Origin: Micractinium sp. NFX-FRZ
Lineage: Eukaryota > Chlorophyta > Trebouxiophyceae > Chlorellales > Chlorellaceae
Length of the DNA stretch: 64,000 nucleotides
Reading direction: 5' to 3'
Assembly: GCA_029339195.1 (NCBI GenBank)
Contig: JAPTJF010000191.1
Span: forward strand, 43,429-107,428
Each line of letters begins with the position of its first letter. Position 1 is the stretch's first letter. Positions 2,296 to 62,414 of the stretch are shown here, piece by piece. The position numbers and the translations under genes were made by a program. Under the pieces are notes generated by a model. The model was given only the letters and a program-made list of their open reading frames with translations. It did not search any database and had not been told where the DNA came from.

Positions 2296-5200
2296 CTTGC
2301 CTCCCTGCTGGAAACCCAACCACCCGCCTGCCCCCCATGCCCTCCCTCCCTCCCTGTAGGGTTGACCTGGAGGTTGCCAAGCGCACGGGCAACGACAAGC
2401 AGCGCTGGCTGGTGGCGCGGGTGGAGCCTTTCACAAAAGACCCTCATTACGTGATGTGGGTGCAGTGACGCTCGCAGAGCATGGCCATTGGCTTGCCTGC
2501 CTGGGCATTGGCAGCCTCGTCTCTAGAGTGGTTCTGTCAATGTCAACAGTGCACCGGGCAGCGGCTGCATGTGCCTGCACTGGGTTGACATGCTCCCAAG
2601 CTGGGTGGATGCCCCTTTGCCGCTGCCTGTGGGGCAGCGCTGCCGGCGTGCGAGTGCACGCAGCAGGCGCCCGCTTGGCATTGCTCGCCTGACTGCTGTG
2701 CCTCCTGTCCCACTGCCGCACGTTCAGGTGTGCGCTGGTCGTGGTGAATGCAGCCTGCAACACAGCACTGCCGCTGTTCATTGACAGGTCGGTGTTGTGC
2801 TGCTGTCTGCCTGCTGTGTGTTGAGGGGCTGGGTGTGAAGAGTCCCATGGCGGATGCCGCACGCACACAAAACCAGACATCTGTTCATGGACAGATGACA
2901 AGAGGGGGTGCATGTGACTGTGTTGGCGGGTGTGGTGCTGGTCCCGCCGCCTGCACTACTGCCTGCAGTTCGCTATGCAATTGCCCCTTGCCCTCGATCC
3001 ACAGCCGGATGCTTGTGGCTGTGCGAATGCTCAACAGGACGGAGCGGGTGCCAGCATCAGCACTTGCCGCCCTCCTTGCTGCACTTCCGGTGCCTGTCTG
3101 TCTGCACACATGCCCTGCCCCCCGCCTCGTGCACCCTCCCGTGCCCTTTCTTACCCTTCGCCCTGCATGCCACTGCCTCCCGCAGGCTGCTCAACCCGTT
3201 GGCCGCCATCCTCATTTCGGTCACCGCCGTCCTGCTGTTTGCTGAGATCGCGCCTCAGGTGGGGTGGGGTGGGTGGTGTGTGTGTGTGGGCGAGCAGATG
3301 GGGGTGGAGTTGAGGCAGGGGCAAGCATGTCACTTTCCCGTTGGCTTTGCAACCCCATGTCTTTGGGCTGCAATTTTGTTGCTTGCTTTGTTTTCGTCTG
3401 TGGAGCATTCACACCTGGGAGGCAGGGACAGGTCGGGAATGGGGAGATGAGCGGGCCCGCTGTCCGCCCATGTCGGCGGGGCGCTGTGGCTGCTACCACC
3501 AGCATGGCTGCCACGCTGCTGTGCAGCTGTTGTGCACACACTGCTGCTGCTGCTGCGCCGCTGCCGTGCAGGCGGTGTGCAAGCGGTACGGCCTGGAGAT
3601 TGGTGCGTACTGCTCCTGGCTGGTGCGCGCCCTCATGCTGCTCACCTTCCCCATATCCTGGCCCCTGGGCAAGCTGCTGGACTGGTGAGGCGGGCAGACA
3701 CAGGGTTGTAGTTTCTCATCATGCCTGCATTCTTTCTTGCGGCCATCCGTGTGTGCTTAAGTGTGTGAGTGTGCAACATAGCCCCCAGCCAGCTGCTTGG
3801 CTGGTGCAGGGGCAGGTGGTGTGGGCCGAGGAGAGCGTGCCGCTCATTCCTGTGCCACGCCGTGACAACGCGCCTCATGCTGTGCCCTGCTGTGCTCTGC
3901 TGCTGCGCAGGCTGCTGGGCGAGGAGAGCGTGCTGTTCAGGCGGCAGGAGCTGTCGGCGCTAGTGGGCCTGCATGCGGAGACGCAGCAGGACGGGTCAGG
4001 TGCGGGGGCGGGGCACCCAAGAGCCTGAGGCGGGGGCGGGGGCTGGGTGGATGGGCGCATGGTTGGGGTGTGTGTGTGTCACATTGTGCGCTAGCAACCT
4101 GTGCTGTGCAGTTCCCGATGGTGCAGGGCGCTGTGCTGCCCGCGGTGGCAGCTGCCGGGCCCGCCTACCATGCACTCCCGCTCTGCCACGACGTGCAACC
4201 AACCGCTCGCCGCCCACTTGCCACCCCGACGCATGTATCCGCTCTTCTGCTGTCTGCCCCTGCAGTGGGCGCGCTGACCAGCGACGAAGTGCAGGTGGGG
4301 CCCGGTGCAGAGGGAGGCTGGTTAGGAGGGCCACTCGTGCACCTCACATTGCCCCCCCCTGCGGCAGTGCCCAGCGCGCCAAGCGCAGCACGCTCCTTCT
4401 GCTCTAGATGCCTCGTGGGTCCAGCCGAGTGGTGGCCTGCAGTGCTGGGTTACACACCATTGCAAACCCCAATAAATTCAACTGTGTGTCACGGTCTGCG
4501 TGCGTGTGTGTGTGTGCCCCCTGCTGCTGCATAGGCTGTGACAAACCAGACCAACACCAATTGGAACCGCGTGTTGCTCTGTGTGTGTGTGTGTGCCCCC
4601 TGCTGCCGCAGGTGATCCAGGGCGCCCTAGACATGGCCAGCAAGACGGCGGGCGGGGTGATGACTCCCCTGGGCAAGGTGGGTCCCATTGATTGGACTCA
4701 TGTTTGTGTGTTTCTCTGTGGCTTTGCGGGCCGCACGGGTGGCGGGCGAAGCGGGGACCCTTTGTTGGGGCGGCATGCCGTCGTCCGATGCTGTGACGAT
4801 GAAGCAGCTGCTGGCAGCCTCGCCCTGCCCCTCCCTCCTCCGTGCTGCCCAGCGTTCCCACGCTGCAGCTGGCCATGATGCAGGTCCCCACGCTGTGGTC
4901 ATGACCTCCTGTGACGCCGTCATCACCCGACTTCCAGCCTCACGGCAATGCTTCCGCCCTGTCCCCACCTACCCCCGCCTGCTGCACCGCAGGTGTTTAT
5001 GATCTCCGGCGACGCCGTCATCAGCAAGCAGCTGCTGGCGGAGGTGATCCAGGCGGGGCACAGCCGCGTGCCGGTGTACGAGGGGGACAATCGACAGGTG
5101 GGGACAAACTCCTGCTAGTTTGCTTTTGCCTTTCCCCCGTCGAGCAGCCTGCTTGTCCCGAGGACAAGCGGAACGTTTGTGTGTGTGGGTGTGTGTGGGT

Positions 5201-8200
5201 GTGGAAAAGGGTGCATGCATGGGCGGGTGTCCCGGCAGCTGGCAGCGAGGGTGTTTTGAGCCCACGCCCCACCAGCGCAGGCAACCCCGGCGCCGCCGCG
5301 TGCTCTTGCTTGGCGTGGTGCCCAGCCCAGCCCTCTCCCCTGCTAACTTGTAACTTTCTAAACTTCCTAAGTCGCCTCCCCGCCCCCTGCAGGTCAGCGT
5401 GGCATCGCGTCCTGGTGTGTGCACAGGAGCCCGTCGCGAGCTCAGCCCTCTCCCCTGCTGATTAACATTGCCTTGCACGGAATGTCACCCCCCGCAGGCC
5501 ATCCTTGGCCTGATCATGGTGAAGGAGCTGGTGTCCAGCCCAGCCCCCTCCCCTGCTAAAATTGCCTTTGCATTACCTTTCCATTAAGACACGTGTAATT
5601 TCACCCCGCCCCCCTGCAGGCCATCCTGGGCCTGATCTTGGTGAAAGAGCTGGTGTCCAGCCCAGCCCCCTCCCCTGCTACCATTAACTTTGCAATACCT
5701 TTCCATTAAGACACGTGGAATGTCACCCCGCCCCCCTGCAGGCCATCCTGGGCCTGATCCTGGTGACCGAGCTGGTGCTGGTGTGCACAGGGTTTGCTGG
5801 CTTACCTTCAACTTACATATAAACATAACAATGTACCCCTCCCGCCCCCCGCAGGCCATCCTGGGCCTGGCCCTGGTGACGGAGCCGGTGTCCAGCCCAG
5901 CCCCCTCCCCTGCTAACATTGCCTTCGCATTACCTTTACATTCACACGTGTAACGTCCCCCTCCCCTTCTGCAGGCCATCCTGGGCCTGATCCTGGTAAA
6001 GGAGCTGGTGCTGGTGGACGAGACGGCTGGGGTGCGCGTTAGGGAGCTGCGCCTGCGGGAGATGCCCTTCCTGCGCGCTGACATCCCGCTGTATGACGTG
6101 CTCAAGGTGAGAAGTGGACGCCGGGCTGGGGAGCGGGAGGAGGGATGTCGGCCGGCCGGCAGCAGGCCGCATCACACCCCGCCCCACCCTGGCCTTCTGC
6201 CCTGGCTTGTCCTGCCTTGCCCCAACCACATCCCACATCAACAGGCAGGCTCCCCACATTGCCCACGCCGTCCCACCCCCACCCGCCCACCCGTGCCCGC
6301 AGATCTTCCGCTTTGGCCGGCGCCACATGGCCTGCCTCACCCGCGTGGCGGCGCCCGACGCCTCCACCGGCGGCGGCAGCGTCGGCAAGGGGGCCTCCCC
6401 GCTGCGCCTGAACAACATCTTCAGGCGCCCCTCCCCCGCATTGCAAACCCTGGGAGACCGGCAGGTGGGTGCTGGGGTTGAGCGCCTCGCGCTGCCTGCC
6501 TCCGCCTGGCGGCGCCCTGCATACCTCGCCGTCAGAGCAGCCGGTGTATGTGCGCGCTAGTTTGGCGTGCAGGTGCAGGGGCGGAGGGTATCCTCCCATG
6601 CAGCCTGTCTTACTTGCCTGTGCTTGCTTCCCTTCAATCATAGTGAGTCATTCGCCCTCGACCTGGCCTGTGCAGGTGGAGGAGGTGGTGGGCATCATCA
6701 CGATTGAGGACGTGCTGGAGGAGCTGCTGCAGGTGGGGGCGTGGCTGCCTGGTACTTCCTGGCGTTGCATTGGCGTTGCATTGCATTGCATTGCTGACAT
6801 GTTCGTTGCTTATGGGAGGGCGGGGAAGGGTGAGGCGGGTAAGACGCGCTTGTGCAGCTGCTGCAGGTGGGGTGACCACAGCTGTGCTTCTGCAAAGCAA
6901 GTTAGTTTGCCATTTTTGTTGTGGCGGACGGTGTACGCACGAGGCAGATTGTGTTGACTGCGGCCAGTGCCGCCGTTTGACATGTTGCATGTCTGACCGT
7001 GCACCTACCCCCTGTACCGCAGGCGGAGATTGTTGACGAGACGGACCAGTGGGAGGACAATGAGCAGACGGTGCATGTAGCACCTCAGGTGCGTGTGACT
7101 CTGGGGCGGGAGCCTGGGGTGCGCTCCCAATCGCCGTGTACCACTACCGGAGCATGCCAGGGCATGAGGCTGAAGCAGCCGAACCTCCCCAGGCCAGGAA
7201 GGCAGTGCGGCATCGCTGCTGCGCAGAGCAATGCGCAGCGAGCCTGGGCAGGGCAGCGCTGGCTGGGGTTGCCTGCCTGCCTGCCTGCCTGCCTGCACGT
7301 CACCCTGGGGCCGCCACCCTTGCAACCTCCCTGCGCCTCCCCCGCAGGTGCCGCTCAAGGAGCTGCCCCCCAACCTGCGCCGCTTCCTCTCCCCCCGCCG
7401 CTCCATGCACGGCCTGGCCCTGGATGCCAGCCTGGGCGCACACAGCGTTGTCGAGTTCACCCGACTGTCAGTCGATGGGGACGACGCGGCCGCCGACGCC
7501 GATGCCGCCGCTGCCGCTGGCGGGCAGGCTGTATCGATGGCGGCGGCTGGCCGGCAGCAGCAGCATCCACAACAGCAGCAGCAGCAGCAGCCACAGAACG
7601 GGGCGGGGCAGCTGCAGCCCAACGGGCAGTTGATTGGCCAGCCGAATGGGCAGCTGAACGGCGTCGGGGGCGACAGCGTGGGCAGCGGTGCGGGTGGTGC
7701 CGTGACCTCCCCTCCCCGCCGCGCCCCCTCACCCTCCATGGGAGCCGCTGCGGCTGCCAGCGCCCTCACCGTGGCAGGCGGCCCCTCCAGTGGAGACCCC
7801 ACAGCCATGGCGGCAGCACTGGCTGCCGGGGTGCGGGCGGCCGAGCTCAATCGGTCTGGCAGCCCAGCAGGCACAGCGGGGCCGGGCAGCCCCAGCCCGC
7901 GGCGCCCGCCGCTGCCGCGCGGCCCCTCGGGCGCCGCGATCGCCGCCGCCCCCGCGTCAAACAGCCGGCTGAGCGGGAATGGGGGCGGGAGCACAGGCGC
8001 ACCCAGCCCCGCCCCCAACCCCGCTGCCCCTCCTTACCCCGCTGGTAGCGGCGGCGCCGTGGCCGGCTCCGGGCAGCAGGTGGCGCCAGCGCCAGCGCCA
8101 GCGCCAGGGGCAGTGCCTGATCAGTATGTTACTGTTGAGCTGGGGGAGATGGCCAGCTGGACGACCAGCGAGGATGGGGAGGCGGAGGCGGCGCACGCGC

Positions 8201-10837: not shown

Positions 10838-13800
10838 ATGGCGGTTGTGGCAGCGCTGCGGCCACTCGGGGAGGGCCTGCCTTCGCTTGTGCAGGGCCTG
10901 GCGCGCGCCTGCGCGGCATCCACAAGCACATGGCTACCTTCTGGAGGACTGCAGGGCAGCGCCACGCCGCAGGCGCGCACGTACGCCGCGGCTGCGGCGG
11001 CGGGCGGCAGGGGAGCAGCAGCAGCAGGCGGCGGCGGAGGGGCCGCCGGCTTGGCCATACCTGGCGTGAACCACATCATTGCTGTTGCCTCTGGCAAGGG
11101 CGGCGTCGGCAAGAGCACCACCGCGGGTAAGGGACTGTCTCAACACATTGTTTAGGTTGGGGCACAGCAGATGCTGGCTAGCAATCACCTCACCCCTTGA
11201 GACGCCGTCGGCGGACCTGCCTTTTGCGTTGGCAGCACCCAGTGCCTCCCTCCCTGCGCTCCTTGCGCTGCAACAGCTCCCCCCCAACCTACCCCACCTC
11301 TATCACTCCTCACATCCCGTCCCTCTCCCCCTCCCCCTCCCCCCATCTCTCCCTCCACCACCCCCCTCCCCCCATCCTTCCCCAGTGAACCTTGCGGTGG
11401 CGCTGTCCCGCCGGCTGGGCCTGCGCGTGGGTCTGATGGATGCCGACGTGTACGGCCCCTCCATCCACAGGATGATGAGCGTGTCGGGCAAGCCGCGGGT
11501 GGACGAGGGTGAGCCGGCGTGGCGTGGGCGCCTTGCTGGCGCAGGTGCCGTGCCCGCGGGGCTGGCGGGTGCTGGTGTCTTGCGTCTGCCAGGTGGCAGC
11601 GTGGTGCGAGCGTGCCGGGCACCCTGCGGGTGGGCCAAGCTGAGGAGCGCACATGCTTTGAGGCAGCAGGGGGGCAAGGACGGGAGGGCGCTCCTGGCTG
11701 TCCCCCCTGTGGCTGTGGCCCAGGCAGCTGCTGAGGATGTGTCGGTGGCGCCTGTGGGTGGGGTGAAGCCTGTGGGGACGGAAGGGTGAGGGCATGGGAG
11801 GGCAGGGGAGGGGAGGGGCCCAAGTCTGCCCCACCACCCTGCCTCTCTGGTCCTGACGCCACGCCGCTCCCCCCTGCGTGCGCCCCCTCACCCGCCCTGC
11901 CCTCATGCAGACGAGAAGATGATCCCGCCGGTCAGCTACGGTGTGTCTTGCATGTCCATGGGGCTGCTGATGGACGAAGACGTGGCTGCTGTGTGGCGGG
12001 GGCCCATGGTGGGTGTGTGTTCCCCCAAATGCAGCGTGCATGCGGCTGCGGTTGAGGGCGGGCTCTCGCGTGTTGCCGCATCTGTCATCCAGCCCATTGC
12101 TGTTGTGTTTGCTTGTGGGCCTGCCGATGAATGGGGACGTGGCGGCGGTGTGGCGGGGGCCCATGGTGAGCGCTCTGCATGCTGTGGTTGACTTGTGGGT
12201 TGGTTTGTTGGTAAGGTAAAGGTAAATTCAGGGGAGATTGGCCTCAGCTATCCCCCGTTGGCCTGCATGGTCGTGCTGTGCACGCTATGCCATCGTCTCA
12301 CGCTGTGCCTGCTGCGCCTCTCCTCCACGCCACTCTCACTCACACAAACGGGTCACGCCTGCGCTGGAGGCCCTCATGCCGCGCATGCTGTGCCCCGTGT
12401 GTTTGACTGTATGGCCTGATGGCGCGTTACAAGTTGGGGGCACTGCCGCCCACTTCATGCTGTGCATGCTGTGCTTCCGCCAGGTCATGTCTGCACTGGA
12501 GACATTCATGCGCCGCGTGCGCTGGGCCCCGCTGGACGTGCTCGTCATCGACATGCCCCCCGGCACAGGCAAGGGGCGGGGCGTTGTAGCGGGGCGTTGT
12601 AGCGGGGCTGGTTGGTTTGCTGTTGAATGGGCGCCGCCAGCACCCCTGGGCCTCCGCTGGATGTGCCGGTCTTTGCCAGGCCGCCAGGCACCTGTGTGAG
12701 GCCTGGTGTGGGCACGGGGGCGGGCGGGAGACGGGCGGCGGGGGGAGGAGCCCGCGGCGCTTGCTGGCGGGCCCCGCCCTGCTGCTGACCGTTGTGCCTA
12801 CCGCTGTCAGGCAAGCCACTCCGGCGGTCCGTGCGTACCGTCCCGCTTGCACCGCGCTACCTCGCTGCTGGGCCAACTGCCGGGCAACGACCAGTCCTGT
12901 GCGCCTGCCTGTGCTGCCCGGCCTGCAGGCGATGCCCAGCTGAGCATCAGCCAGCGGCTGAGCCTGTCGGGAGCCGTGATTGTGACCACGCCCCAGGTGT
13001 GTAACGATTTGCTGGCAAAGCAGCAGCCAACACGCCTGCCTCAGGGCCTGCGGGGCCACGGTGTGTGGTGAGCCTGTTCGGGGGCCGTGGTTGACTGGCT
13101 CCACCCCGGTACAGGTGCGCATATGGTTACCAATTCCCTGCTGTGAAACTGTGGCTGGAGAGGTTGTCTGGGTGCCTGTGGGGTAAGGGTGCGTGAAGAA
13201 CCTGCCAGGGCGCCGCACTTGCGCCCACGTGCTGCAGCTGTGTGGAGCGTGCAGCACAGTGTGCTGGGCTGGCAGGGCGGAGTGCAGTGCAGGCAGCCCC
13301 TGCCATCCGCCTCCCCTTCCCTGCCATCACTGAACAAGAGGTACCCGCTCCCTGTTCCCCATTGGCAATATGTTCACACACGCACACACACACACACGCA
13401 CACACACATAACAAAACAAGTGCTGCCTCCTGCCCCATGCGCTGTGCAGGACATTGCGCTGCTGGATGCGCGGCGCGGGTGCACCATGTTCCGGAAAGTG
13501 AACGTGCCCATCCTGGGTGGGTGGTTCAGTGCCAGCGTGCTTCCGTGTGGTTGGCGTTGGGTGTGTGTTGCCACTCGGATCGCCAGGCGTTTGCGCCATG
13601 TCATGCTGCAGAGCGCACCTCCCCACACTGGGAGCGCGCATGTGGGTGTCTTGCGGTGGGTTACCACACCGTGCGCTTGCCAGCCTCGGCCGAGGGGGCG
13701 CCAGTGCACCGCGCCTGTGCTGCCGTGCCGATGCGCCTCCGGTCGGCCGTAGAAGAAACGAGCCTGGCACGCGGCAGACGAGCAGAGCAAGGGCTTTGGT

Positions 13801-14074: not shown

Positions 14075-14110
<36 letters not shown>

Positions 14111-15093
14111 CAACTCACCCTGGCCCCCTTTCTCACTTGCCTGCCTGCCCGCCTGCCTAATTTTCCCGCTTTTGCCTGTGCTGCTGAGAGCCTGCTTGCT
14201 GTCCTTGCCTGCTGTGCTCGTTGACGTATGCCTGGCCCGGCCTGTGCCGTTGCCGCCGTTGCCCTTGTGCCTGCGGGTGCCCTGCCCTGCTTTGGCGCCC
14301 ACCCTGCCCGATGTGCCTGCTGCGCCCCGCTGTGCCCAGGTGGCGCTGAGAAGGCGGCTGCTGACATGGACATGGAACTGTTGGGCAAGGTGAGCTGAGC
14401 TGACCTGGCAGGCTGTTGTCAAGGCCAATTGAGAACCAGGCATTGGTCGGAGAGAGGGAGCAACTTCGGACGGAGGGCAGGCTCCCCCTTGGCAGTAGCC
14501 ATCCCGCCGCGCGCAGGCCATTTGCCGCGTTCATTCCGGGCCTCCCAGCAGCGCCTGCCAAAGCGTGTCTTGGCTGGAAGCCCTTGCTTTCGTCGTTCGC
14601 CCCACCGCCGCTGCCACTGCCTCGGCTGCCGCCAGCCACGCCACGCCCCAGGTGCCCGCTCTCCCTCCTCCCCACTGCCCCCCTGGCCCCTCAGATCCCG
14701 CTTAACATTGCCATCCGGGAGACAGCGGATGCGGGGGCTCCCATCGTGGCCACACAGCCAGACAGTGCGGCGGCGCAGGTGGGAGGGGCGCGCGAGCGGG
14801 GAGGAAGCTAAGCTTAAGGGGCGGAGGCGCGTGTGCTGTGCCGGGGGTGGGGACAAGCGGTGAGCCAGGGGTCACTTGCTCTGCTTACCCTGCCTGCCTG
14901 CCTGGCCTATTTTCTTTCGAAGACTTCCGTCCTCTCACCCGGCCCTGCTGGTAATCTGTTTCTGGTGCAGGCCTATGTGTCGGTGGCGGAACGGATTTGG
15001 GAGAAGCTGCAAGCAGGCGACGGCAGCGGCGGCGGCGGCGCAGAGCAGCGGCGGCAGCCCCGTGGCCCCCCAAAGATCGTATTTGAGAGCTGA
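10838..15093 (+). CDS. IND1: Mitochondrial Fe-S carrier P-loop ATPase, IND1/NUBPL type
   Basis: Mrp/NBP35-family ATPase that delivers 4Fe-4S clusters to respiratory complex I in the mitochondrion. Ten exons fit in phase: 10838-11126, 11386-11508, 11911-12008, 12484-12568, 12929-12996, 13450-13516, 13999-14067, 14340-14389, 14695-14778 and 14971-15093, giving 351 aa. The N-terminus is Ala/Arg-rich like a mitochondrial presequence. The deviant Walker A GKGGVGKS is at residues 86-93. DADVYGPS, SCMSMGLLMDED, VWRGPMVMSAL, VIDMPPGTGD and QDIALLDARRG follow, and the cluster-binding CxxC is C254-G-N-C257. This order and the VWRGPMVMSA stretch match NUBPL rather than cytosolic NBP35 or plastid HCF101. 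The start is the first ATG in frame. The intron after 12568 uses a GC donor (ACAG|gcaagg). Introns 3-5 contain worn copies of exon edges. Confidence 0.93.
12118..12395 (+). pseudogene. Worn copies of IND1 exon 3 end and exon 4 start in intron 3
   Basis: At 12118-12170 the end of exon 3 with its donor is repeated (GGACGTGGCGGCGGTGTGGC then GGGGGCCCATGgtgag). At about 12351-12395 the start of exon 4 is repeated in worn form (GGTCACGCCTGCGCTGGAGG). True exon 3 ends at 12008 and true exon 4 starts at 12484. The exon 3 copy still has a GT donor but no acceptor that I can see. Confidence 0.7.
13067..13118 (+). pseudogene. Worn copy of IND1 exon 5 end in intron 5
   Basis: The string gagcctgttcgggggccgtg followed by gttgactggctccacccc and acaggtgcg mirrors the end of exon 5 (GAGCCTGTCGGGAGCCGTGA, ...ACCACGCCCCAGgtgtg). 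It contains frame-breaking changes, including an extra base. Confidence 0.6.
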
Positions 15094-26458: not shown

Positions 26459-29400
26459 ATGCTCAGGCGGCAGGCCGTGCGAGCGCTGCGCCTGGGGGCC
26501 GCGGGCCTTGAGCAGCGGCCCGTCTCAGCGTTCGGGCCCAATCCTGCGATCGGATGCCTGTCGCGCGGTTGGTCCAGCCAGGCAGCAGAGGCACCCGCCG
26601 AGGCCCCCACGCTGCCACCCTTCGACTATGTGCCCCCGATTTACACCGGACCCTCCAAGGAGGAGGTGCTGCACCTGCGCAAGAAATACCTGAGCCCGGG
26701 TGAGCAAATTTTCGCGTCACAGGGACCGTCCGACAGCGCTGGCACTGGGGCGGCGGCGGAGGTTGGCGGCAGCGGGCGCCGCCTGCTGCTTCGCCTCCCA
26801 CGCGCAGCACAGCGCTGCCCGCCGCTGCCTGTGCTGATGCCCGCCCTGGGACAGACTGGGAAGAGCTCAGCAGGGCTGTTGGTTGCCGATTGGCTGCCTT
26901 TCAGGGGGATGATGCTTGCCCTGCTAGGCCCCATGCTCTGCTCAACCCGGTTGGTTGCCTTGCCGCCCCCGACTTGCGGCACACCCTTCCTGTCTGCCTG
27001 CAGCCATCTTCCACCATTTCAAGCACCCAGGTGAGCTGATAAACCCAGCAGCCTGCCTGCTGCACACTCAGCCTGCTTCCGCACTTGCCCAGGGCTCCAG
27101 GGGCCGCGCGTTCAATGCGGCTGCCTGCGTGCCCCTGCGTGTTGCGGGCAACCGGGTGTGTCACTGTTTCCTAGTGCTTTGCTCATCAACCGCCTGAACC
27201 TCCTCCCGACCGACTTTGGAGGTTGATGTTTGCTGCTGCCATGATGATTATAGAGAGCACACCGCAGCCCCTGCAGGAGGCCGATTCACGCAGCCTGCCT
27301 GCCTGCCTGCCTGACGGACAGACGGACAGACAGACTGACTCAGTGGCCTGGCCCTGCCGCGCGACACGCATGCTGTGCTGTGCTGTGCTGTGCTGTGCAG
27401 TGATGATCACCGACGGCAAGATGCAGTACCTGTTTGACGAGACGGGCAAGCGGTACCTGGATGTGAGCACCCTTAAGTTGCTGCTGCCGGGTTTTGATGC
27501 GGAGGGGCGCGGTGCGCAGGGTTGGGCACTAGGTTGGATGTGAGCACCTTGAGTTGCAGCTTCCGGGTTTTGCTGCAGAGCGCCAGGGTGTCGCGGGGCT
27601 GGACATGATATTGGGTGCGAGTGAGCGCGTCCTGCTGCTGCTGGGGTGCTTGGGAGGTCGGAGGCACGCAAGGCGGGAGGCAGGGCTGTGGGGTGCTGCG
27701 GACGGCCGGGTGCTTCCGGGACCTGCGTCCAACCACCACTCACTCTCTACCAGGCACCCATGCCAAGGCCTTTTGACGGCAAATCGTCAGCGTGGGGCGG
27801 TGCCACACCCAGCTCCCGTGCCCTCTCACACTGGCCCCCTGCTGCTCTCACATCCGACGTGCTCTCACCCACACGTGCCAGGCCTTTGGCGGCATCGTCA
27901 CCGTCAGCGTGGGCCACTGCCACCCCGAGGTGAACGCCGCCGTCATCGAGCAGACGCAGCGCCTGCAGGTGCGGGCCCCATGGATGGGCGGGGTAGGGGG
28001 CGGTAGCAGCAGGGAGACAGTCAAACACGGTGGGGTAGGGGGCGGTAGCAGCAGGGAGACAGTCGAACACCCAGAGGGGCATGCAGGCGCCCCTGAGCGG
28101 GCGCAGCGCCTGCATGTGAGGCGCCGCCACGCCTCGCCTGGGTGGGTTAAGGGGGAGGTAGCAGCAGCAGGGAAGCTGTCACCCACCCAGAGGGGAACGC
28201 ACACGCCCCACTGAGCCGACGGTGGGCCTGCAGGTTTCCCTAGGCCTGCCCGCATGCCAGCCTGCTTGCCAGCCTGCCTGCTTGCCTGCTGGCCTGCAGC
28301 GTGGCGGTGCAGCGGTCGTGATTCGTTGGGCGGCCTGCAGCACGCTGGCGAAGCCTGACCCGCCTCCCTGCAGCCAGCCCCACCATTATCACCCCCCCCC
28401 CCCCCCTGCACATGCCCCACCCCACCGTGCATTCGACGCCCTCCCAACCGTTTCTCCCTTGCAGCACACGACCACCATCTACCTGAACCACCGCATCGCC
28501 TAGTGTTCCAAGGAGCTGACCTACACCAGCGCCTCCCCTGTGACCGTCACAGAACCATGCATCACACGCCCTCCCCTCCCTTGCAGCACACGACCACGAT
28601 CTACCTGAACCACCAGATTGCCGAATATGCCAAGGAGCTGACCGACAAGATGCCCGGGGACCTGAAGGTCGCCTACTTTGTCAACAGCGGCAGGTGGGGG
28701 CAGGGGAACGCGCACACGAGGCGGGGGTGGGGAGGGGTGTGCGACACAGTGATGGGCAGGTGCTGTGGTGGGGCAAGGTGCCCTGAGACCCGAAGGCCGA
28801 CGACATGGCGGTGCGCAATGCCCGCCTGGCGTCCAGTTCTGGAGCTGCTCCCTGCCGAGCTACTCTCTGTGTGTGTGTGTGTGTGTGTTGCTCCGTCTTT
28901 ACGCAGCGAGGCCAACAACCGGCAGCGACGACGATGGCTCACCTGGCCAACCGTTTCGGATGCACTCCCACTTTTTTTCACAAAACCGTGCAGCGCTCCC
29001 GCGCTGTGCCACGAGTCCCCTGTTCCAACCAAACCATGTGTGTGCTGCTCCCTCCCTCCCCTCATGTGCAGCGAGGCTAATGACATGGCGATGATGATGG
29101 CCCGCCTGGCCACCGGAAGCCACGACATCATCACGCTGCGCAATGCATACCACGGCCTGTCGGGTGCGCCTGCCCTGCTTGCCTCCCAAGCGCTGCCTGC
29201 TGCTCTTCCCAGCATGCTCTGCCATGTCTCTGTCACCTCCCAGAGGGTCCTCACGCCGCGCAGCGCATGGCGCCACGCTCTCAGGCGTGCCTTCCCTCTT
29301 TCTTGTGTGCTTGTTTGGTTGGCTTTGACACGGCAGCGCGCGCTTGCACCCTCCCTGTCCGGTCGCTTGTGCCCAGCTGCCTCTGCCCCCGCTCGCCCGC

Positions 29401-32400
29401 TCTGCGCCAGAGCCCACCACGCCCACCACGGCTGCCACCGCTGCCCCCCGTTCTCACCGGCCCTGCTGCGCCCCTGCTGCGCTCTGCCTGCCTCACCGCC
29501 CCTTCTGTGCCCCTCCTGTCGCGGCCGCCCTTTGCCCTACCACCCATGCAGAGGCCACAATGGGCCTGCTGGGGCAGCACACGTGGAAGTACCCGGTGCC
29601 GCAGGTGGGCTTCTTATGCAGTGAATTGAACTTCAATGAGATTTCTAGTCGTTCTCATTATGAGGCATGCGCTCAATTGAAGCGGCGGGCTGGCCTCTGC
29701 CGACGGCTTTGCCAGCACATGCTCTGCGCCCGCCCGCCTGCCTGCCCGCCTGCCTGCCCGCCTGCGTGCGTAGTCGGCCCACGTGCATGCCCCGCCCTTG
29801 CCTGCCCTGCCCTCGTCGCCTCACTTGCCCGCCCACGCCTCACCCCGCCTGCCTCCCACCGTGCAGGGCGCCGGGGTGCACCACGCGCTCAACCCCAACC
29901 CGTACCGGGGCGTCTTTGGAAATGACGGCCCGGCCTACGCGCGGGACGTGGCCGACCTCATCCAGGCAGCCACGCCGGGTGGGTGGGCAGGCTAGCTGAC
30001 ACAGGAGGGGGTGGGGGTGGGGCGGCGGGGGACACATGCGCATGTGGCTGGGGACGTGGCTGGCCTCATCCAGGCGGCATGGCAGCAGATGCAGTAGCAG
30101 GAGGGGACAGCAGAATGCTGGAGAGAGCGTGTGTGTGTGGGGGGGGGGGGAGCACAATGTCGCCGATGTCATCGAGGCAGCCAGACCAGGTAGGAGTGCC
30201 CGACAGCAGGCCAGAGGAGCAGGGCAGCGAGGGTGTGGGAATGTACCACAGGCCATGTGGCCGGGGCTGTGGCCGACCTGATCCAAGTAGCCGCTTGTGC
30301 CTGTTGCCGCAAGGAACGCGCGTTCACTGCACGACCGCCTTTTTGGGGCTCGGCACCAACCTCTGGTACCCCTTCCCTGCTGTAGGGCGCGTGGCTGGCT
30401 TCATCCACGAGACGGTGCAGGGCGTGGGCGGCGCGGTGCCGCTGGCGGACGGCTACCTGCCCGAGGTCTACAAGGTCGGTGGCTGGGCTCTGACAAGGGT
30501 TCATTGCGGGTTTGACAAGGGTTCATCGCAAGATTCATTGCGGGTAAAAAGATGTAAAGCAAACAAGAGCAAAAGCAAGGGTCTGCTTATCCCGGGGCGC
30601 TTACCGGGGTTTGAGAGGCAGGTCCCGAAGCACCACTTGCTCACAGATGTTTTTGTAAAGCAAGGCACTTGGTGCTGCGCCCCGACACCCCGCCCACCTG
30701 CCCGCCCACCCCGGCCTGTCCTCTGTCCCCGCCCCTCTGCTCCCCTGCGCAGCTGGTGCGCGCGGCGGGCGGCGTGTGCATCGCTGACGAGGTGCAGACG
30801 GGCTTTGGGCGCACCGGTTCCGCCTACTGGGGCTTCCAGAACCAGGTGGGTGACTAGAGAAGAAAAGGGGAAGAGGAGGACAGGGAATGGAGATGCAGGG
30901 GAAGGGACGGGGAGGGAGAGGGAGGGAAGAGGGCACCGGCTGCATCCATTGCACTGGCTTTTGTAACGGTGCTGTTATAAAGGTGCTTTTATAACGGGGC
31001 GGTGAACAGGAGGGGGGCGGTGAGGGACGCGCGGGGTCCGCCTGCCAGAGCTTGCACAACCGGATTGGCCGGAGTGGTGATTTGAAGGATAGGGAGGGAT
31101 GGAGGGGCTGGGGAAGTGGAGCGGGCCTGCATCACCAGGTGATGCCACCTTTTCAACAACTTACAGCTCTCTGACTCACTGCACACTTCCGCCCGCACCC
31201 CTCTGCTACTACCTCGTCCTGTCAGCGCAGCCGTGACCATCGCCCACGTTCTGTGCATCCCGATCACACCTGCAGGGCGTCGTCCCCGACATTGTCACCA
31301 TGGCCAAGGGCATTGGCAACGGGCTGCCGCTGGCTGCCGTGGTCACCACCCCCGCCATCGCGCAGGTGCTGGCCCAGCGCCTGCACTTCAACACGTTTGG
31401 TGAGCGGGGGTTGGGTGTTTGGGGGCGCTGGGTAGTGGCGGCGGCAGCAGGGGGGCTCAACCCGGTGCTGCTTGCTGTGCTGCCGCGGCATGCTGTTTCC
31501 GTCCCCACACCCAAGCACCGGTGTTGTGCGCTGCTGGGCGCGCTGCGCTGCACCTCCCGCCAAACTCCCCACCATCGGTAACAAGCACCAACTTGGTCCC
31601 TCTGCACCCCACCCCACCCCACCCCACCCCAACTCTGCCCTCTCCCTGCAGGCGGCAACCCGGTGTCGTGCGCTGCCGGGCGTGCTGTGCTGCGCGTGAT
31701 TGACCAGGAAGGCCTGCAGCAGAACTGCGCAGATGTGGGCGGCTACCTGATGCTGAAGCTGAGGTGGGGGCAGGGGCTGGGCAGGTGGGGTGGCTGGGTT
31801 GGGCGGCATCGCATGCGGGTTGCTGCAGATCCGTGCCAACGTGTGCGGCTACATGGTAAGCTGCCCAAGCTGAGGCGGGGCCCGGACAGGGCCAGCCTGG
31901 CAAAAGGTATAATGGAGCAGGCAGGGCCAGCCCGGCGTGCGATCTGGCGTGATTCACAGCCACAGGAGGCGCCCGCTTTTTGGGCAGCAGGCAGCTCAAT
32001 CACACGACTGGCGGCAGCCTGCCACGCTGTCTGACCCTCCACCCGCTGCGCCCACGCTCGCCTGCTGTGTGCGCTGTGCAGGGCGCTGCACAGCAAGCAT
32101 AGCGTGATTGGGGACGTGCGCGGGCTGGGGCTGATGGTGGGGGTGGAACTCGTGAAGGATCGGGAGACAAAGGTGAGGGGGGATGGAGGGAGGGCAGGGG
32201 GGCAGAGGGAGGGAGGGGAGCAGGGCAGGAGGGGAGGCAGGAGGCAGGGAGGGAACGAGGGGAGGAGGGCAGAGGGGAAGAGGACTGAGGGATAAGAAAG
32301 TCAAGGTGTGTGAAGGGAGGCCAGCATGGGCTAACGAGGGGCAAGGTGTGCGTTTGCAAGAGCAAGGGAGGGATGTTGGGGGGAGGGGCCGGGTGTGTGA

Positions 32401-33443
32401 CGGCAGTGGCCAGCCAAGTGACAGGCAAGGAGAGCAGGGTGGGTGGGATGAGGGCAGGAGGGGATGTGTTTGCAAGAGGAGGAGGTTGCAGCGAGCAGGT
32501 GTGGGAATAATATGATGCAGTTAAGGAGTCTGTGATGGTTTTAGGGGGCTGGTGGGGTGGGCAGCTGTGGGGGCAGCGCAGCGCGCCTGGCCCCTGCCCC
32601 GCCCCGACAAATCGGCTTGCCCCGTTTTGCCACCCGCCCCCGCAGGAGCCGGCGACGCACGAGACGGCCCAGGTGTTTGAGCGCTGCAAGGACATGGGAC
32701 TGCTGCTGGGCAAGGGAGGTGAGCAGTGCACAGGGGAGGAATAGGTCTCTGTGACCTGCTCGGCACGTGAGCAGCAACAGGGGAGGGAGGGGTCTGAGTG
32801 ACCTGCCTGCTTTTCAAGGGAAGGGAGGAGGAGTGGGCGCTGTCCAGGCCTGGGCTGCTGCTGCGCAAGGCGGGCTGGTGTGGTCGTTTGCAGCTTTGAG
32901 CTTGTGTGTGTGTTTGGAAGACTCGTGGTCACGTCACTGGTGCGAACGCGGGCATGCGCTTGGTGGCAGCAAGGGCCCGGGGCTGCCTGCAGGCCTGTTG
33001 CTCGGGGCAGCCTGTGGCTCACCCCCCGCGTGTCGAGGCCCAGCCAGCCCTTCCTCATGGCACCTTGCTCTCGTTCCCTGGTGCAGCCCTTGCGTACCAT
33101 CTCCTCCCCTGCCCTCTGGCCGGCACGGGGCAATGCGCTATAACCAATGGGCGTCTGCCGGCTGCCTGGCACCCTGCCCCCTACTCAAAGATGTGTCTGC
33201 CTGCTGGATCCGCCCTGCCTTGCCCCGCAGGCCGGGTCGGCAGCGTTGCGTGCGTCAAGCCCCCCATGCGCTCGCCCCCCTCCACACCCCTCCCTTCACC
33301 CCTCCCTGTGCCCCCAATCACCCTCAATTTCCACCGCAGGCCTGCACGGCAACGTGTTCCGCCTCAAGCCCCCCATGTGCTGGTCCCACGCTGACGTGGA
33401 CTTTGCTGTCGCTGTCATGGACCAGGCGCTGTCGGAGCTCTAG
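26459..33443 (+). CDS. AGXT2: Alanine-glyoxylate aminotransferase 2, mitochondrial (class III, PLP)
   Basis: PLP enzyme that transfers an amino group from alanine to glyoxylate, giving glycine and pyruvate; plant and animal AGT2 are mitochondrial. Fifteen exons fit in phase: 26459-26699, 27004-27030, 27401-27462, 27882-27968, 28587-28693, 29072-29163, 29552-29604, 29867-29978, 30386-30474, 30753-30845, 31276-31399, 31652-31763, 32082-32172, 32646-32718 and 33340-33443, giving 488 aa, the usual length plus a presequence ([16 protein letters not shown]). Class III landmarks are [20 protein letters not shown] (PLP phosphate), [14 protein letters not shown] with Asp302 (PLP ring nitrogen), and TMAKGIGNG with Lys332 as the Schiff-base lysine. 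[13 protein letters not shown] and the C-terminal [13 protein letters not shown] also fit AGT2. The ATG lies in a ccaccATG context. Nearly every intron contains copies of a neighbouring exon edge. Confidence 0.93.
27529..27815 (+). pseudogene. Copies of AGXT2 exon 3 end and exon 4 start in intron 3
   Basis: The exon 3 donor region (ggatgtgagcacc, then cttaagttgctgctgccggg) recurs 76 bases on at about 27535, still with gtgagc. At about 27760-27815, GCCTTTTGACGGC, TCAGCGTGGGGCGGTGCCAC is a worn copy of the exon 4 start (GCCTTTGGCGGC, TCAGCGTGGGCCACTGCCAC). Confidence 0.75.
28465..28545 (+). pseudogene. Dead duplicate of AGXT2 exon 5 with in-frame TAG
   Basis: After a good acceptor (ccttgcag) the sequence CACACGACCACCATCTACCT, GAACCACCGCATCGCC copies exon 5 (28587), 122 bases upstream of it. 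It then reads TAG (28501-28503) where the true exon has GAA, and diverges after AAGGAGCTGACC. Splicing to this acceptor would end the protein at once. Confidence 0.88.
28781..28955 (+). pseudogene. Two worn copies of AGXT2 exon 6 in intron 5
   Basis: At 28790-28840, GCCGACGACATGGCGGTGCG and CCCGCCTGGCG copy part of exon 6. At 28907-28955, after tttacgcag, CGAGGCCAACAACCGG followed by GATGGCTCACCTGGCC copies its start. The true exon 6 starts at 29072 with CGAGGCTAATGACATGGCGA. Confidence 0.75.
30040..30300 (+). pseudogene. Three worn copies of AGXT2 exon 8 end in intron 8
   Basis: The exon 8 end (GGGACGTGGCCGACCTCATC, CAGGCAGCC) recurs as GGGACGTGGCTGGCCTCATC, CAGGCGGC at 30051-30080, as GTCGCCGATGTCATCGAGGC, AGCC at 30158-30182, and as GGCTGTGGCCGACCTGATCC, AAGTAGCC at 30264-30292. 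Confidence 0.8.
31822..31885 (+). pseudogene. Worn copy of AGXT2 exon 12 end
   Basis: CTGCAG...GCCAACGTGTGCGGCTACAT and gctgcccaagctgaggcggg mirror the exon 12 end (GCAGATGTGGGCGGCTACCT, GATGCTGAAGCTGAGgtggg). Frame and donor are lost. Confidence 0.65.
32764..33275 (+). pseudogene. Worn copies of AGXT2 exon 14 end and exon 15 start in intron 14
   Basis: The donor-side sequence of exon 14 (ggtgagcagtgcacaggggagg...gtgacctgc) recurs at about 32765-32812. CTGGGCTGCTGCTGCGCAAG at about 32850 copies the exon 14 end, and GTCAAGCCCCCCATGCGCTC at about 33255 copies the exon 15 start (CTCAAGCCCCCCATGTGCTG), preceded by an acceptor-like ccccgcag. Confidence 0.7.
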
Positions 33444-54493: not shown

Positions 54494-55698
54494 ATGCGCC
54501 GCCGCCCAGCTCGCGGCGCCCGGTCAGACCCGCACCCACCGCCGCAGCCTGCTGTGGCCTCGCCGGCGATGCGGCTGCCCTGGCGCCTGCCACGGCTACC
54601 TGTGTGGGCGGCCTGCGCCATGAGGCTTGTCTGCGCGGTAGTAGCTGCTGCGGTTCTGCCCATCAGCACGCCGTTTGGCGGCCAACTGGGGTGCTACTTG
54701 AGCAGCGAGGTGAGGGCATGCGAGGGCCTGCTGTCGACCAGCATGGAGGGACTCCGGCTGCGCCCCTCATATGGTGTGATGGCTTGATGGACATGGCAAA
54801 GTGTGCCTGCAGGCATGCCCCGCTGTCGCCCTCTGGCACCGCAAGCCCACCTTGTCGCCCGCCCGCCCGCCCCCGCCCGCCGCAGGCCCTCCTCCTTCCG
54901 TCCCTGGCGCTCCTGCTGCCGCTGCCGCTCAAGCACCACCTGTGGGTGCAGGCGCTGGCGGTGCGCTCGGCCCTGGCCCGCATGCGCCGCCTGGGCACGC
55001 TGCAGGCAAGCCTGCCGCGGTGCGCCGGCGAGTGCGCACGCTTTGTGCGCGCCGCGCGGCTGGGGCTGCTGGCTGTCGCGCCTGGCAGCTCAGCGCAGCT
55101 GTCCCAGCCGCAGGCCGCAAGCAGGTGCTGGATGATGCACATCTGGGTGGTTGCCATGCTGGGCTACTTCCTTCCAACTGTGGTGCTGGCAGCGTGGACA
55201 CAGTTCAGGCGTCAGCAGGAGCGCCAGCAGGAGCAGCAGCTGGGGCAGCAGCTGGCCGCGCAGGCGCCGCCAGCCGGCCGCTGGACCAGCCTCGGCATGC
55301 AGCCCACCCGCAGCCCCAAACAGCCGCAGCAGCATGGCGAGGAGGCGGCGGCGGCGGGCCAGCGCATGCCGGCGCGTGAATGCCCCACAGCCGCCGATGC
55401 CGCGGAGCAAGGCTGCCACGCTGACGCCGCGCTGCGTGCGCAGCTGCCAGCTGGCATCGATGCATCCGACGTCAGCAGCGCCTCCTCGCCAGCAGATGTC
55501 GCCCAGCTCAGCTTCGGGGCTGGTGGCGCTGCCAAGCCCGGCTGGTACGACCCTGCAGCAGCGTGCCACCTCGCGCCCCTGCAGCTGCTGGCGGCGCTGC
55601 TGCACTGGCTCACGCTGCTGCTGCCTGTGGGCGCGGCGGGGTGGGCAAGCCTCGAGGTGGCCGCTCTTTTCACTGGCGCTGTTGCTGTGCCACCGTAA
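54494..55698 (+). CDS. Unknown multi-span membrane protein, family member B
   Basis: Paralogue of the proteins at 34202-35356 and 57969-59239. Two exons (54494-54709 and 54886-55698) join in phase 0 to 342 aa. The intron sits after LGCYLSSE, the same place as in A and C. Exon 2 opens ALLLPSLALLLPLPLKHHLW and VQALAVRSALARM, followed by CARFVRAARLGLLAVAPG, CWMMHIWVVAMLGYFLPTVV and a long hydrophilic loop with Gln/Ala repeats and GIDASDVSSASSP. It ends with LLHWLTLLLPVGAAGWASLE. The N-terminal part before MRLVCAVVAAAVLPI is basic and Pro-rich and could instead be leader sequence. Function unknown; no enzyme motif is visible. Confidence 0.65.
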
Positions 55699-57968: not shown

Positions 57969-59239
57969 ATGGTGCAGCCCTTGCTGCTGGCAGGGTTGTA
58001 CCTGGCCTGCTGGTCGGCTAGCAGCTGGGTTGGCCACGGCGCGTCCTTTCTGCGCTGTCGAAACACATGGGTGGCGTCTGGTCTCCGGCTGGGCGTGGCG
58101 TCTGCAGCGGCGGCGATGCCCGTGGTGCTGCCCCCCACCCACCCCCGCCTGCCACACCCCCTCGAACTAGCACCCAGCAACCTGGCAGCGTACCTGAATG
58201 CAGAGGTGAGGCCTGAGGCCCTGCACGGCTCACAGGTGCTGCTTCCTACCCTAGGGCCTGCAGCAGCTGTGACGCGTGTGCCGGCGGTTGCGCCCGATGT
58301 GGCGGCTGTTGGGTGCGGACGGCAGCGTGGGTGCTTGCCTACGCCCCCTGCCTGTGTGCTTGGCGCCCCTTCTTTACAAAAATGAAAGCGTGCCCTGCTC
58401 TGTTCTTCCTGGTACCTCTGCCGCCCTTCCGCTGTCCGCCACCTGCTGCTCACACGCTGGCCACCACCCTCCCTGCCCCTCTTCCCATGCAGGCCCTGTT
58501 CCTTGCTGCCGCAGCGGTGGCGCTGCCGCTGCCGCTGCGGCACCACCTGTGGGTGCAGGCGCTGGCGCTGCGCTCCGCGCTGGCCCGCATGCGCCGCCTC
58601 GCGCAGGCGCACGCGGCGCTGCCGCACCGCGCCGCCGACTGCGCCCGCTTTGTGCGCTGCGCCCGGCTGGCGGTGCTGGCAGTCGTGCCCGGCGCACCGG
58701 CGCGGCTGCCCGAGCCGAGGGCACAGCACTGCTGCTGGATGATGCACGTGTGGGTGGCAGTCGTGGTGGGCTACTTTCTCCCAACCGCTGTGCTGGCAGC
58801 GCTGCGGCAGCACCGGCTGCACCGCCCGCCGAGGCCCGGCCAGCGCCCGTGGTCTGCCCTTGACTGGCTGGCAATGGCCAGCCCCGACCTGAGCGGCAAA
58901 GCGCAGCTCAGCTCCTCAGAGGACAGCCCGGCGCACAGCCCGGGGCCGCGGGGCGGGGCGGGGCAGCAGCGCACGGGCGGCCCCCGCACAGAGCGCAGGC
59001 AGCAGCAGCGCCAGAGGACAGCTGCGCAGTTGAGGCAGCCGGCCAGCGCATCTGACTGCCCCTACACGTCGTCAGATTGCGGCAGCGCGTGCAGCCGGGG
59101 CAGGAGCCCAGCGTGCTCAGCGCGCCACCCGCCCGCCCCGCTGCTGCTGGCATCCCACCTCCTCCACTGGCTGCTGCTGCTGCTGCCCAGCGGCGCGCTG
59201 CTGTGGGCAGCCCTTGAACTGCTGTCACACTGGCTGTGA
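57969..59239 (+). CDS. Unknown multi-span membrane protein, family member C
   Basis: Third member of the family, 2.3 kb downstream of B on the same strand. Two exons (57969-58205 and 58493-59239) join in phase 0 to 327 aa; the intron follows NLAAYLNAE, matching A and B. Exon 1 has hydrophobic MVQPLLLAGLYLACW and GLRLGVASAAAAMPVVLP, the latter close to member A. Exon 2 carries LPLRHHLWVQALALRSALAR, CARFVRCARLAVLAVVPGAP, CWMMHVWVAVVVGYFLPTAV and the end HLLHWLLLLLPSGALLWAAL. The loop between the last two spans is Ser/Gln/Arg-rich and little conserved. Across the second exon C resembles A more than B. Function unknown. Confidence 0.68.
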
Positions 59240-60650: not shown

Positions 60651-60655
60651 TTACA
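60651..60655 (-). terminator. Candidate polyadenylation signal TGTAA (RSRC2-like gene, minus strand)
   Basis: TTACA on plus, 400 bases after the RSRC2-like stop codon on minus. Confidence 0.4.
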
Positions 60656-61054: not shown

Positions 61055-62414
61055 TCAGAGGCCGCCCAGCCCGGCGGTGCGGTGTGCCAGCTGGCGGCGC
61101 AGGCCCGACTGGAACTCCCGCTCCAGCTGCCCCAGCACCTTTGCCTGCTCCTCCCCTGCAGCAGCGCAGGAGGAAGATGAGGTTGAGTGCTGGGGACAAC
61201 TTTGCAAGGGGGAGTGAATGTCATAAACCAGCAGGGGGTGAGCAAGGGTAGATGAGAAGAGGCCTTGACCTGCTGCCCCCTGCAGCAGCAGCAAGCAGGG
61301 GGGCGAGGGCAGGGGCAGCAGCAGCAGGGAGCACAGATGAGCTGTGGGATGCATGCAGTTCATGGCTCCACCGCCTGTGCCCGCTCCTCCCCTGCAGCAA
61401 AGACAGCAAGTGCAGGAGCAGGGGTAGCAGCGGAGGTGTCGGCGTGGGGCAGCAGCGAAGGTGCCAGGCAGCGACAGGGCGCAAGCAGCTGATGGGCAGC
61501 GGCCAACCTGTGTCGGGAAGACTGGCAGCAGCAGGGGCGGCAGGCAAGCGGGGCAGGCACGGGGCGGCAGGGCAGTGCAGGGCAGGGAGGCAGGGCGCGG
61601 CATGGTGGGGCAGGCAAGCAGGACAGGCCGCAAGCAAACAAGCCAATAAGAAGTTCGACAGGCTTCAGGCAGGCAAGCGGGGCAGGCAGGTGCTCACGCC
61701 TCATAATGTCGGGTCCCTCCGCCGCCGGGCGCCCCTCTGGCCCTGCTGCACCTCCAGGCACCGCCTCCTCCACCCCCATGGCCCCCTCCACCTCCGCTTC
61801 CGCTTCTGCCCCCGGCAGCGCAGGGCCAAGGCCAGGCCTGGCGGGCTCAGCCCCTGCTTGTGGCTCAGGCTCGAAGCCTGGGGCAGGCCCAAAGGCGGGG
61901 CCAAAAGCGGCCGGCTCGGGGCCGGGCGGCCCAAAGGCGGGCGCCCCGTGCTGCGCCAACTCAGCCGCCGCCTTGCCACCCTGCATGCGCAGCGCGGGAC
62001 GGAGGGGTGGGATGGACCGGCCGGTGAGAGCAGGCAAGGGACGTGTGCGGGCGGGCGGATGCTGCGCACGACAAAGGCGCCACCATGGGGGGGTCTGATG
62101 AAAGCCCTCTGCATGGCTTGCGTAAGCTCGCTCGCCAGGACCATGCCACGTCAACGCAATTCCACCCATCTGCCCACACGCTGCTCTGACGCAGCCACCC
62201 ACCACCCTTTCCAAACAAGCAAGCAAGCCAGCCAGCTCACCATGAGTTTGATAAACTTGAGCCGCTCTTGTTCGCTTGTGAATTCGGCACGGTCCCACCG
62301 GTTGTGCCCAAACACGGCCTGAGAGAAAGGGCGCAGGTAGGCTTGAGGCGATGTGGGTGCGGTGGGACAGGTGCAAGCCGGGCGGCAGCGGGGTGGGGTA
62401 GGGTGGGAGAAGAG

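What the first reader, a model, noticed from the sequence alone, without database searches (positions are those of the whole stretch)
4480..61402. Introns across the window are littered with decayed copies of the neighbouring exon edge and its splice site
I count more than twenty such copies in at least seven unrelated genes: CNNM (exons 9, 10, 11), IND1 (3, 4, 5), kelch (5, 6), AGXT2 (3, 4, 5, 6, 8, 12, 14, 15), eL33 (4), the secreted repeat protein (2, 7) and the RSRC2-like gene (last). Each copy lies close to its parent, in the same orientation, spans an exon-intron junction, and is broken by lost splice dinucleotides, stops or frame changes. This looks like a genome-wide process of frequent short tandem duplication across exon boundaries (about 75-350 bp), followed by decay. 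Such copies would lengthen introns and could seed new splice sites, alternative exons or new introns. I know of tandem duplication as a proposed route to intron gain, but not of this density in a green alga.
Basis: partly seen in the sequence, partly recalled or inferred. Interest (0 to 1): 0.85.

Follow-up and report, generated by a model that had tools for sequence, protein, structure and literature searches.

The report
Decaying exon-edge duplications inside algal introns
In this green alga, introns often carry decayed leftovers of short (about 110-base) tandem duplications that straddled an exon edge, a mutation that seems harmless, lengthens introns and may supply raw material for new splice sites.

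Summary
In three genes modelled by homology (CNNM, IND1/NUBPL, AGXT2), 15 of 36 introns carry a decayed copy of the neighbouring exon edge. Over 304 kb of this 66-Mb genome, 85 of 1051 splice-junction probes match their own intron, against 0 of 1051 reversed and 2 of 1051 unrelated introns. The copies fall in a 75-140 bp class (median 110), apart from a 14-50 bp repeat class. They differ from their parents almost equally at all codon positions, so they decay without coding constraint. Introns with a copy are about 106 bp longer, one unit. Best explanation: frequent ~110-bp tandem duplication; a unit crossing a splice junction leaves one junction intact, and the spare copy rots in the intron. 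'Spans a junction' is partly built into the search. Even so, 13 of 13 duplication clusters in the verified genes touch an exon, where simulations expect 46-65%; the most alike pairs do not show this excess (8 to 7). Preference for junctions is possible, not shown. Splicing of copies is untested. New variant of a known kind.

The parts
4879..5025 (+). CNNM exon 9 (4993-5097) acceptor edge and its decayed copy at 4879-4927, about 100 bp upstream, 78% identical
   Evidence: annotation-blind pair 4895-4925/4993-5023
5316..6016 (+). CNNM intron 9 (877 bp, longest found in the gene): array of decayed units of about 122 bp, copies of the acceptor and first ~42 bases of exon 10 (5975-6106)
   Evidence: a genome search with one unit matched only here
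6707..6872 (+). CNNM exon at 6682-6732 donor edge and copy at 6841-6872 (offset 134, 84%)
11399..11644 (+). IND1 exon 2 donor edge and copy at 11527-11644 (offset 128, 68%)
11920..12172 (+). IND1 exon 3 donor edge and copy at 12085-12172 (81%)
12349..12691 (+). IND1 exon 4 (12484-12568) with copies on both sides: acceptor-edge copy 12349-12397, donor-edge copy 12631-12691
12932..13110 (+). IND1 exon 5 donor edge and copy at 13043-13110 (offset 111, 72%)
   Evidence: genome search matched only here
27458..27621 (+). AGXT2 exon 3 donor edge (exon ends 27462) duplicated with offset 77
27755..28235 (+). AGXT2 exon 4 (27882-27968): acceptor-edge copy 27755-27814, donor-edge copy 28068-28121, and a further repeat of that stretch at 28141-28235
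28424..28662 (+). AGXT2 exon 5 (28587-28693) acceptor edge and copy at 28454-28545 (offset 122, 85%)
   Evidence: genome search matched only here
28903..29115 (+). AGXT2 exon 6 acceptor edge and copy at 28903-28953 (offset 165, 81%)
29915..30294 (+). AGXT2 exon 8 donor edge with copies at 30051-30078 and 30234-30294
31518..31882 (+). AGXT2 exon 12 (31652-31763): acceptor-edge copy 31518-31551 and donor-edge copy 31778-31882
32648..32874 (+). AGXT2 exon 14 donor edge and copy at 32805-32874 (offset 157, 74%)
33220..33391 (+). AGXT2 exon 15 acceptor edge and copy at 33220-33282 (offset 109, 73%)

Best explanation
The copies are remnants of frequent direct tandem duplications with a characteristic unit of about 75-140 bp. 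When a unit crosses a donor site, the upstream original exon end and donor can go on being used, and the second exon edge plus donor lies inside the intron. When it crosses an acceptor, the downstream acceptor and exon can go on being used, and the first copy lies inside the intron. The mRNA is then unchanged, so the duplication is tolerated, the intron grows by one unit, and the spare copy decays without coding constraint. Duplications wholly inside exons are mostly purged unless short and in frame, and those wholly inside introns lose similarity about twice as fast. SHOWN: the repeats, their direct orientation, the side on which copies lie, the size class, the near-neutral decay, the greater length of host introns, and for three units searched genome-wide (plus one exact 27-base pattern) no match elsewhere. 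INFERRED: that the original splice site is the one used, the purging, and the mutational step. I think the step most likely is a staggered double-strand break (or two nearby opposing nicks) filled in and end-joined.
For: Direct against inverted local repeats 169:2, shuffles 3, 8, 6. Own-intron hits 85 of 1051; reversed 0 of 1051; other introns 2 of 1051. Of 11 of 789 wrong-side hits, 10 are the same near-edge copies seen through an exon of 107 nt or less and 1 (exon 6303-6464) is an exception. In the 85 copies, 64 alignments reach the junction, and the offset has median 110, IQR 98-138. The ungapped offset spectrum is bimodal: 43 loci at 14-53 bp, 6 at 54-73, 55 at 74-133, 16 above, of 120; shuffles 1 and 2 loci. 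Some units are fully contiguous tandem copies: offset 83 with 86 aligned, 97 with 105, 88 with 88. Of 16 high-identity junction copies examined (of 85), the intron side of the unit also aligns at z>=6 in 7 and z>3 in 10. Mismatch by codon position is 0.121, 0.153, 0.167, and N/S is 2.05 against 2.65 for random change. Introns with a copy have median 349.5 bp (n=76), without 243.5 bp (n=468). Junction-class offsets (75-140 bp) are not held to multiples of three (10 of 44), whereas short exon-exon repeats are (10 of 11). Genome searches with three units matched only beside their parents (the tool calls its counts lower bounds), and an exact 27-base pattern of a fourth occurs twice, both in the window. 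Staggered breaks giving small tandem duplications: PMC8355091 (passages read). A tandem duplication crossing an intron-exon boundary in potato: PMC4974935 (passages read).
Against: In 6 of 16 high-identity copies the intron side of the unit does not align (z<2), which simple recent tandem duplication does not predict. The junction share is higher than a random-placement, neutral-decay simulation gives (13 of 13 against 0.46-0.65 expected), and the exon part is shorter than simulated (lenient median 51 against 67-72 nt), so unbiased placement may be incomplete. The scarcity of units of 54-73 bp is not explained. Third-position mismatch is only slightly raised, less than I would expect from a parent exon drifting at synonymous sites. 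Longer introns offer more room for a copy, which confounds the length comparison, though chance hits are rare (2 of 1051). Gene models outside three genes come from a home-made HMM (31 of 33 verified internal exons exact, but started from those genes, and it merges neighbouring genes). No RNA-seq, no relative's genome and no population data were available.
Confidence: 0.8

Rival explanations
1. The duplication process is itself directed to exon-intron junctions (for example by splicing-coupled R-loops, nucleosome phasing at exon edges, or breaks at splice sites), making units of roughly 30-50 nt exon plus 60-80 nt intron.
For: 13 of 13 duplication clusters in the verified genes touch an exon by >=5 nt; expected share 0.46-0.65 in simulations with random placement and decay. 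Genome sample: 56 exon-intron, 17 non-exon, 7 exon-exon of 80 loci; permuted 29.8, 34.3, 15.9. Exon part shorter than with random breakpoints, KS p from 7e-4 to 3e-11 depending on scoring and age.
Against: Among the most alike pairs (>=90%) the split is 8 junction to 7 other; at >=84% it is 26 to 8 where simulations expect 0.50-0.71 junction, so differential decay may make much of the excess. At least one of those 7 (5324 in the window) belongs to a junction array. Selection against longer exon-like decoys could also shorten the exon part.
Confidence: 0.25
2. The copies are functional: alternative or mutually exclusive exons, or decoy splice sites kept by selection.
For: 46 of 59 alignable splice dinucleotides remain canonical. 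In CNNM intron 9 the HMM joins four 21-39 nt copies as extra exons.
Against: Codon-position pattern nearly flat and N/S 2.05 against 2.65 random. 104 of 118 alignable dinucleotide bases are retained (88%), about the same as exon-part bases of the copies (85%). Indels in 31 of 85 copies. The spliced alignments of AGXT2, IND1 and CNNM to homologues did not use the copies as exons.
Confidence: 0.06
3. A dispersed element (introner-like or transposon) inserted in introns.
For: Genome-wide occurrence and a preferred length.
Against: Each copy resembles its own neighbouring exon, not a common consensus: 2 of 1051 probes hit an unrelated intron; three units match only locally in a genome search.
Confidence: 0.02
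4. Assembly artefact (false duplication of reads or haplotypes).
For: One large 88% repeat flanks an N gap at 16219-16523.
Against: Copies diverge from parents by median 21% one-sided, share a size class, and occur in 18 of 21 stretches from other contigs; assembly duplication would give near-identical copies.
Confidence: 0.02

Closest known systems
Tandem duplication of a segment crossing an intron-exon boundary in potato RdRp (PMC4974935; passages read)
   Same: A tandem duplicate holding the 3' part of an intron and the 5' part of the next exon; the same paper notes a second, 83-bp duplication within an intron.
   Different: In potato one duplication created a new spliced intron. Here dozens of old duplicates sit inside existing introns and decay; no new intron is shown.
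[quoted passage not shown] reviewed in PMC3443670, passages read; Drosophila cases in PMC2891723, passages read)
   Same: Internal tandem duplication involving splice-site sequence.
   Different: That model duplicates exon only and makes the segment between copies an intron. Here the unit crosses an existing junction and merely lengthens an existing intron.
Small tandem duplications from fill-in of staggered breaks (CST / Pol alpha-primase, PMC8355091; passages read)
   Same: Direct, contiguous, short duplication not needing long homology.
   Different: Shown in mouse and human cells with induced overhangs as small as 43 bp; nothing ties it to splice junctions or to this alga.
Introner elements (Micromonas; passages of PMC3443670; PMC9860276, start of abstract only)
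   Same: Genome-wide, intron-associated, known from a green alga.
   Different: Introners are dispersed copies of one element; here copies are local and specific to their exon.
Minisatellites (general knowledge)
   Same: Tandem repeats, some multi-copy (CNNM intron 9).
   Different: Mostly two copies; a 75-140 bp class straddling exon edges, separate from the 14-50 bp class.

Membership tests
Small direct tandem duplication | Same-orientation, local copies well above chance and above inverted copies | tested here: met
   169 direct against 2 inverted; shuffles 3, 8, 6
Small direct tandem duplication | Copies contiguous, unit length equals offset | tested here: inconclusive
   Met for well-preserved units (periods 64, 83, 88, 97, 104, 117, 122 bp); in decayed ones only part aligns; intron side aligns at z>3 in 10 of 16 examined
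Intron gain by tandem duplication (AGGT model) | New intron whose ends derive from the two copies, absent in relatives | not testable with these tools
   No relative's genomic DNA is held; the copies seen lie inside introns (192-877 bp in the verified set)
Introner elements | Similar sequence in many unrelated introns | tested here: not met
   2 of 1051 probes match an unrelated intron; three units match only locally
Tandem exon duplication for alternative splicing | Whole exon copied with frame kept under coding constraint | tested here: not met
   No aligned extent equals the whole exon (0 of 85); N/S 2.05 against 2.65 random
Staggered-break fill-in duplication | Dependence on end-joining / CST-Pol alpha genes | not testable with these tools
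   Needs mutants

The most novel reading that the evidence does not exclude
In this chlorellacean lineage a mutational process of nearly fixed size (about 110 bp) preferentially duplicates exon-intron junctions, linking splicing or exon-edge chromatin to DNA breakage, and is a main driver of intron length.
Probability: 0.22. Interest if true: 0.85.

Novelty: new variant of a known kind. Interest (0 to 1): 0.57.

Why it matters
The one junction-crossing tandem duplication that my literature searches turned up is a single potato gene (PMC4974935; searches). A genome in which about 8% of probed junctions (85 of 1051), and 15 of 36 introns in three verified genes, carry a recognisable decayed copy gives a large natural series, from contiguous near-intact units to faint remnants. 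It makes intron lengthening, decoy splice sites and the first step of intron gain directly measurable, and it points to a local source of intron sequence other than dispersed elements. The separate 75-140 bp size class also asks for a mechanistic cause.

Tried and rejected
Early self-trained gene finding and the first spliced alignments were wrong because my code could not use phase-0 introns; replace them (of I use only the counts on verified introns). One search failed on an unsupported BLAST gap cost; one search used a permissive scoring dominated by low-complexity matches (831 direct, 534 inverted, 436 shuffled direct at the lowest threshold) and was dropped. One search failed on an import and was rerun. 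A sharp lower limit of 60 bp in the BLAST offset spectrum I first took as real; I ascribe it to BLAST discarding matches near the self-diagonal (recalled, not tested), so the spectrum comes from an ungapped scan.

Considered and rejected: a 'splice-site only' copying (100% identical 32-bp copies in L012 and L023); by eye their intron sides share further sequence with indels, but in L023 the alignment z is only 1.0, so this is not excluded for a few loci. Preferential loss of the spare splice site: not seen (104 of 118 dinucleotide bases kept against 85% identity in the exon part). Frame-constrained duplication: not seen in the junction class. Donor against acceptor bias: 35 of 527 against 50 of 524, p=0.09. 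My first reading of a tightly fixed exon part weakened when ages were matched and a lenient scoring used. The junction excess is absent in the most alike pairs. Rows dropped before counts: HMM exons under 15 nt or under 25 nt, introns of 60 bp or less, short-period repeats (masked), and in the simulations units wholly exonic or holding an entire intron; also units holding a whole exon.

Literature searches for prior descriptions listed no report of this density in an alga; I saw listings, at most 15 rows each, and the library holds open-licence papers only.
Full report
What was checked. The window is C191:43429-107428 of a 66-Mb, 838-contig genome held without a name. Its best protein relatives include Chlorella, Micractinium and other trebouxiophyte green algae. 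I fetched 24 further 10-kb stretches (3 from the same contig, 21 from other contigs), so that 304 kb were examined in all.

Gene models. The 32 introns counted as verified are 192-877 bp with TGCAG-type acceptors. A small HMM started from these models recovers 31 of 33 of their internal exons exactly, though it merges neighbouring genes; it is used only for the statistics over 304 kb.

Is it more than chance? Yes. Local direct repeats (20-800 bp apart, low complexity masked) number 169 at >=32 bits; inverted ones number 2; three order-2 Markov shuffles gave 3, 8 and 6 direct. A junction probe (up to 70 nt of exon plus the splice site) finds a match of score >=30 in its own intron in 35 of 527 donor and 50 of 524 acceptor cases, against 0 of 1051 in the same introns reversed and 2 of 1051 in unrelated introns. 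Looking on the wrong side of the exon gives 11 of 789; inspection shows that 10 of these are the same near-edge copies seen through a short exon, and 1 (exon 6303-6464) is not. In the window alone, 27 of 192 junctions reach p<=1/300, 21 of them in the three verified genes.

Anatomy. The copy lies on the intron side of its own junction, in the same orientation. The offset between parent and copy has median 110 bp, IQR 98-138. An ungapped scan shows 120 loci in two classes: 43 at 14-53 bp and 55 at 74-133 bp, with 6 between and 16 above; two shuffles gave 1 and 2 loci. The two classes differ in place. The short class is noncoding or in frame inside exons (10 of 11 exon-exon offsets are multiples of three). 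The long class is mostly exon-intron: of 80 loci at 75-300 bp, 56 have just one copy exonic, 17 none, 7 both, where 300 random rotations of the annotation give 29.8, 34.3 and 15.9. Some of the 17 are in fact junction cases (the CNNM array and 27458-27621, shown by the verified models). The best preserved units are contiguous tandem copies: 83 bp at 22130 and 97 bp at 21548, 88 bp in L013. CNNM intron 9 holds an array of 122-bp units with the start of exon 10.

Fate. Comparing each copy with its parent exon, mismatches fall at 12.1, 15.3 and 16.7% of first, second and third codon positions, and the ratio of nonsynonymous to synonymous differences is 2.05 against 2.65 if changes were random. A protein-coding copy would show a strong third-position excess; this is decay. 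The splice dinucleotides decay no faster than the rest: 104 of 118 alignable bases kept, against 85% identity in the exon part. One-sided divergence has median 21%. Introns with a copy are longer, 349.5 against 243.5 bp at the median (76 and 468 introns), a difference of about one unit; in the verified genes 402 against 278 bp (15 and 21 introns). Genome searches with three units matched only beside their parents, and an exact 27-base pattern from a fourth occurs only twice, in the window.

How it most likely works. A tandem duplication that crosses a donor leaves the upstream copy in place to be used, and one that crosses an acceptor leaves the downstream copy; in both cases the spare edge is inside the intron and the message is unchanged (inference from anatomy). 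This alone predicts the side, the orientation, the junction at the edge of each copy, the indifference to frame and the added length. The mutational step is inferred. Breaks with complementary overhangs filled in and end-joined make small tandem duplications in mammalian cells (PMC8355091, passages), and that paper cites analyses of natural insertions in humans and plants as pointing to breaks from nearby opposing nicks.

Is the junction a target? Part of it is built into the search, since only a junction-crossing unit can put exon sequence into the neighbouring intron. To test the rest I simulated random placement, purging of exon-internal units and neutral decay. Expected junction share among detected clusters in the verified genes was 0.50-0.65 with assumed ages and 0.46-0.57 with ages taken from the data; observed 13 of 13. 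Over the 304 kb the simulation gives 0.46-0.50 against 56 of 73 observed. The exon part of the unit is also shorter than with random breakpoints. Against this, pairs with >=90% identity split 8 junction to 7 other, and at >=84% 26 to 8, where simulations allow 0.50-0.71. I therefore leave targeting as a possibility at about one in four to five.

Against my reading. In 6 of 16 high-identity copies the intron side of the unit does not align; fast indel turnover or later deletion would explain it, but a few copies may have arisen otherwise. Longer introns also offer more room for copies. The gene models behind the 304-kb statistics are predictions, and no transcript or relative was available.

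Known and new. Tandem duplication as a source of introns is established, mainly for AGGT-bearing exon segments (PMC3443670, PMC2891723, passages), and one potato case crosses an intron-exon boundary as here (PMC4974935, passages). Seven literature searches listed no account of junction-crossing remnants at this density. It is a new variant of a known kind: the same elementary event, but genome-wide, with its own size class and a full range of decay.

Noticed in passing
15519-17241: Two 700-bp segments, 88% identical and 1005 bp apart, flank the window's only N run (16219-16523): either a real coding tandem duplication or a poorly joined overlap at the gap.
   Followed up: no
14768-15109 and 18063-18381: The last part of IND1 is repeated about 3.3 kb downstream at 76% identity, including part of its last coding exon: a partial gene duplicate.
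   Followed up: no
54882-55194 and 58489-58801 (also 55559/59118): Two similar segments 3.6 kb apart, 78% and 72% identical.
   Followed up: no
12569: IND1 intron 4 appears to use a GC-AG donor (cag|GCAAGG); the only GC donor among the 32 verified introns counted.
   Followed up: partly
5498-5875: Four CNNM copies (21, 33, 33 and 39 nt) keep a reading frame that the HMM joins as extra exons (AILGL...): the best place to look for a copy that is spliced.
   Followed up: partly
L009:5702-7049: A long degenerate tandem array (TRF period 105 bp, about 11 copies, 70% matches), same unit size as the junction class.
   Followed up: no
10838-33440: IND1 and AGXT2 lie near each other here; their Chlorella vulgaris hits carry close locus numbers (D9Q98_002816 and D9Q98_002819), suggesting kept gene order.
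   Followed up: no
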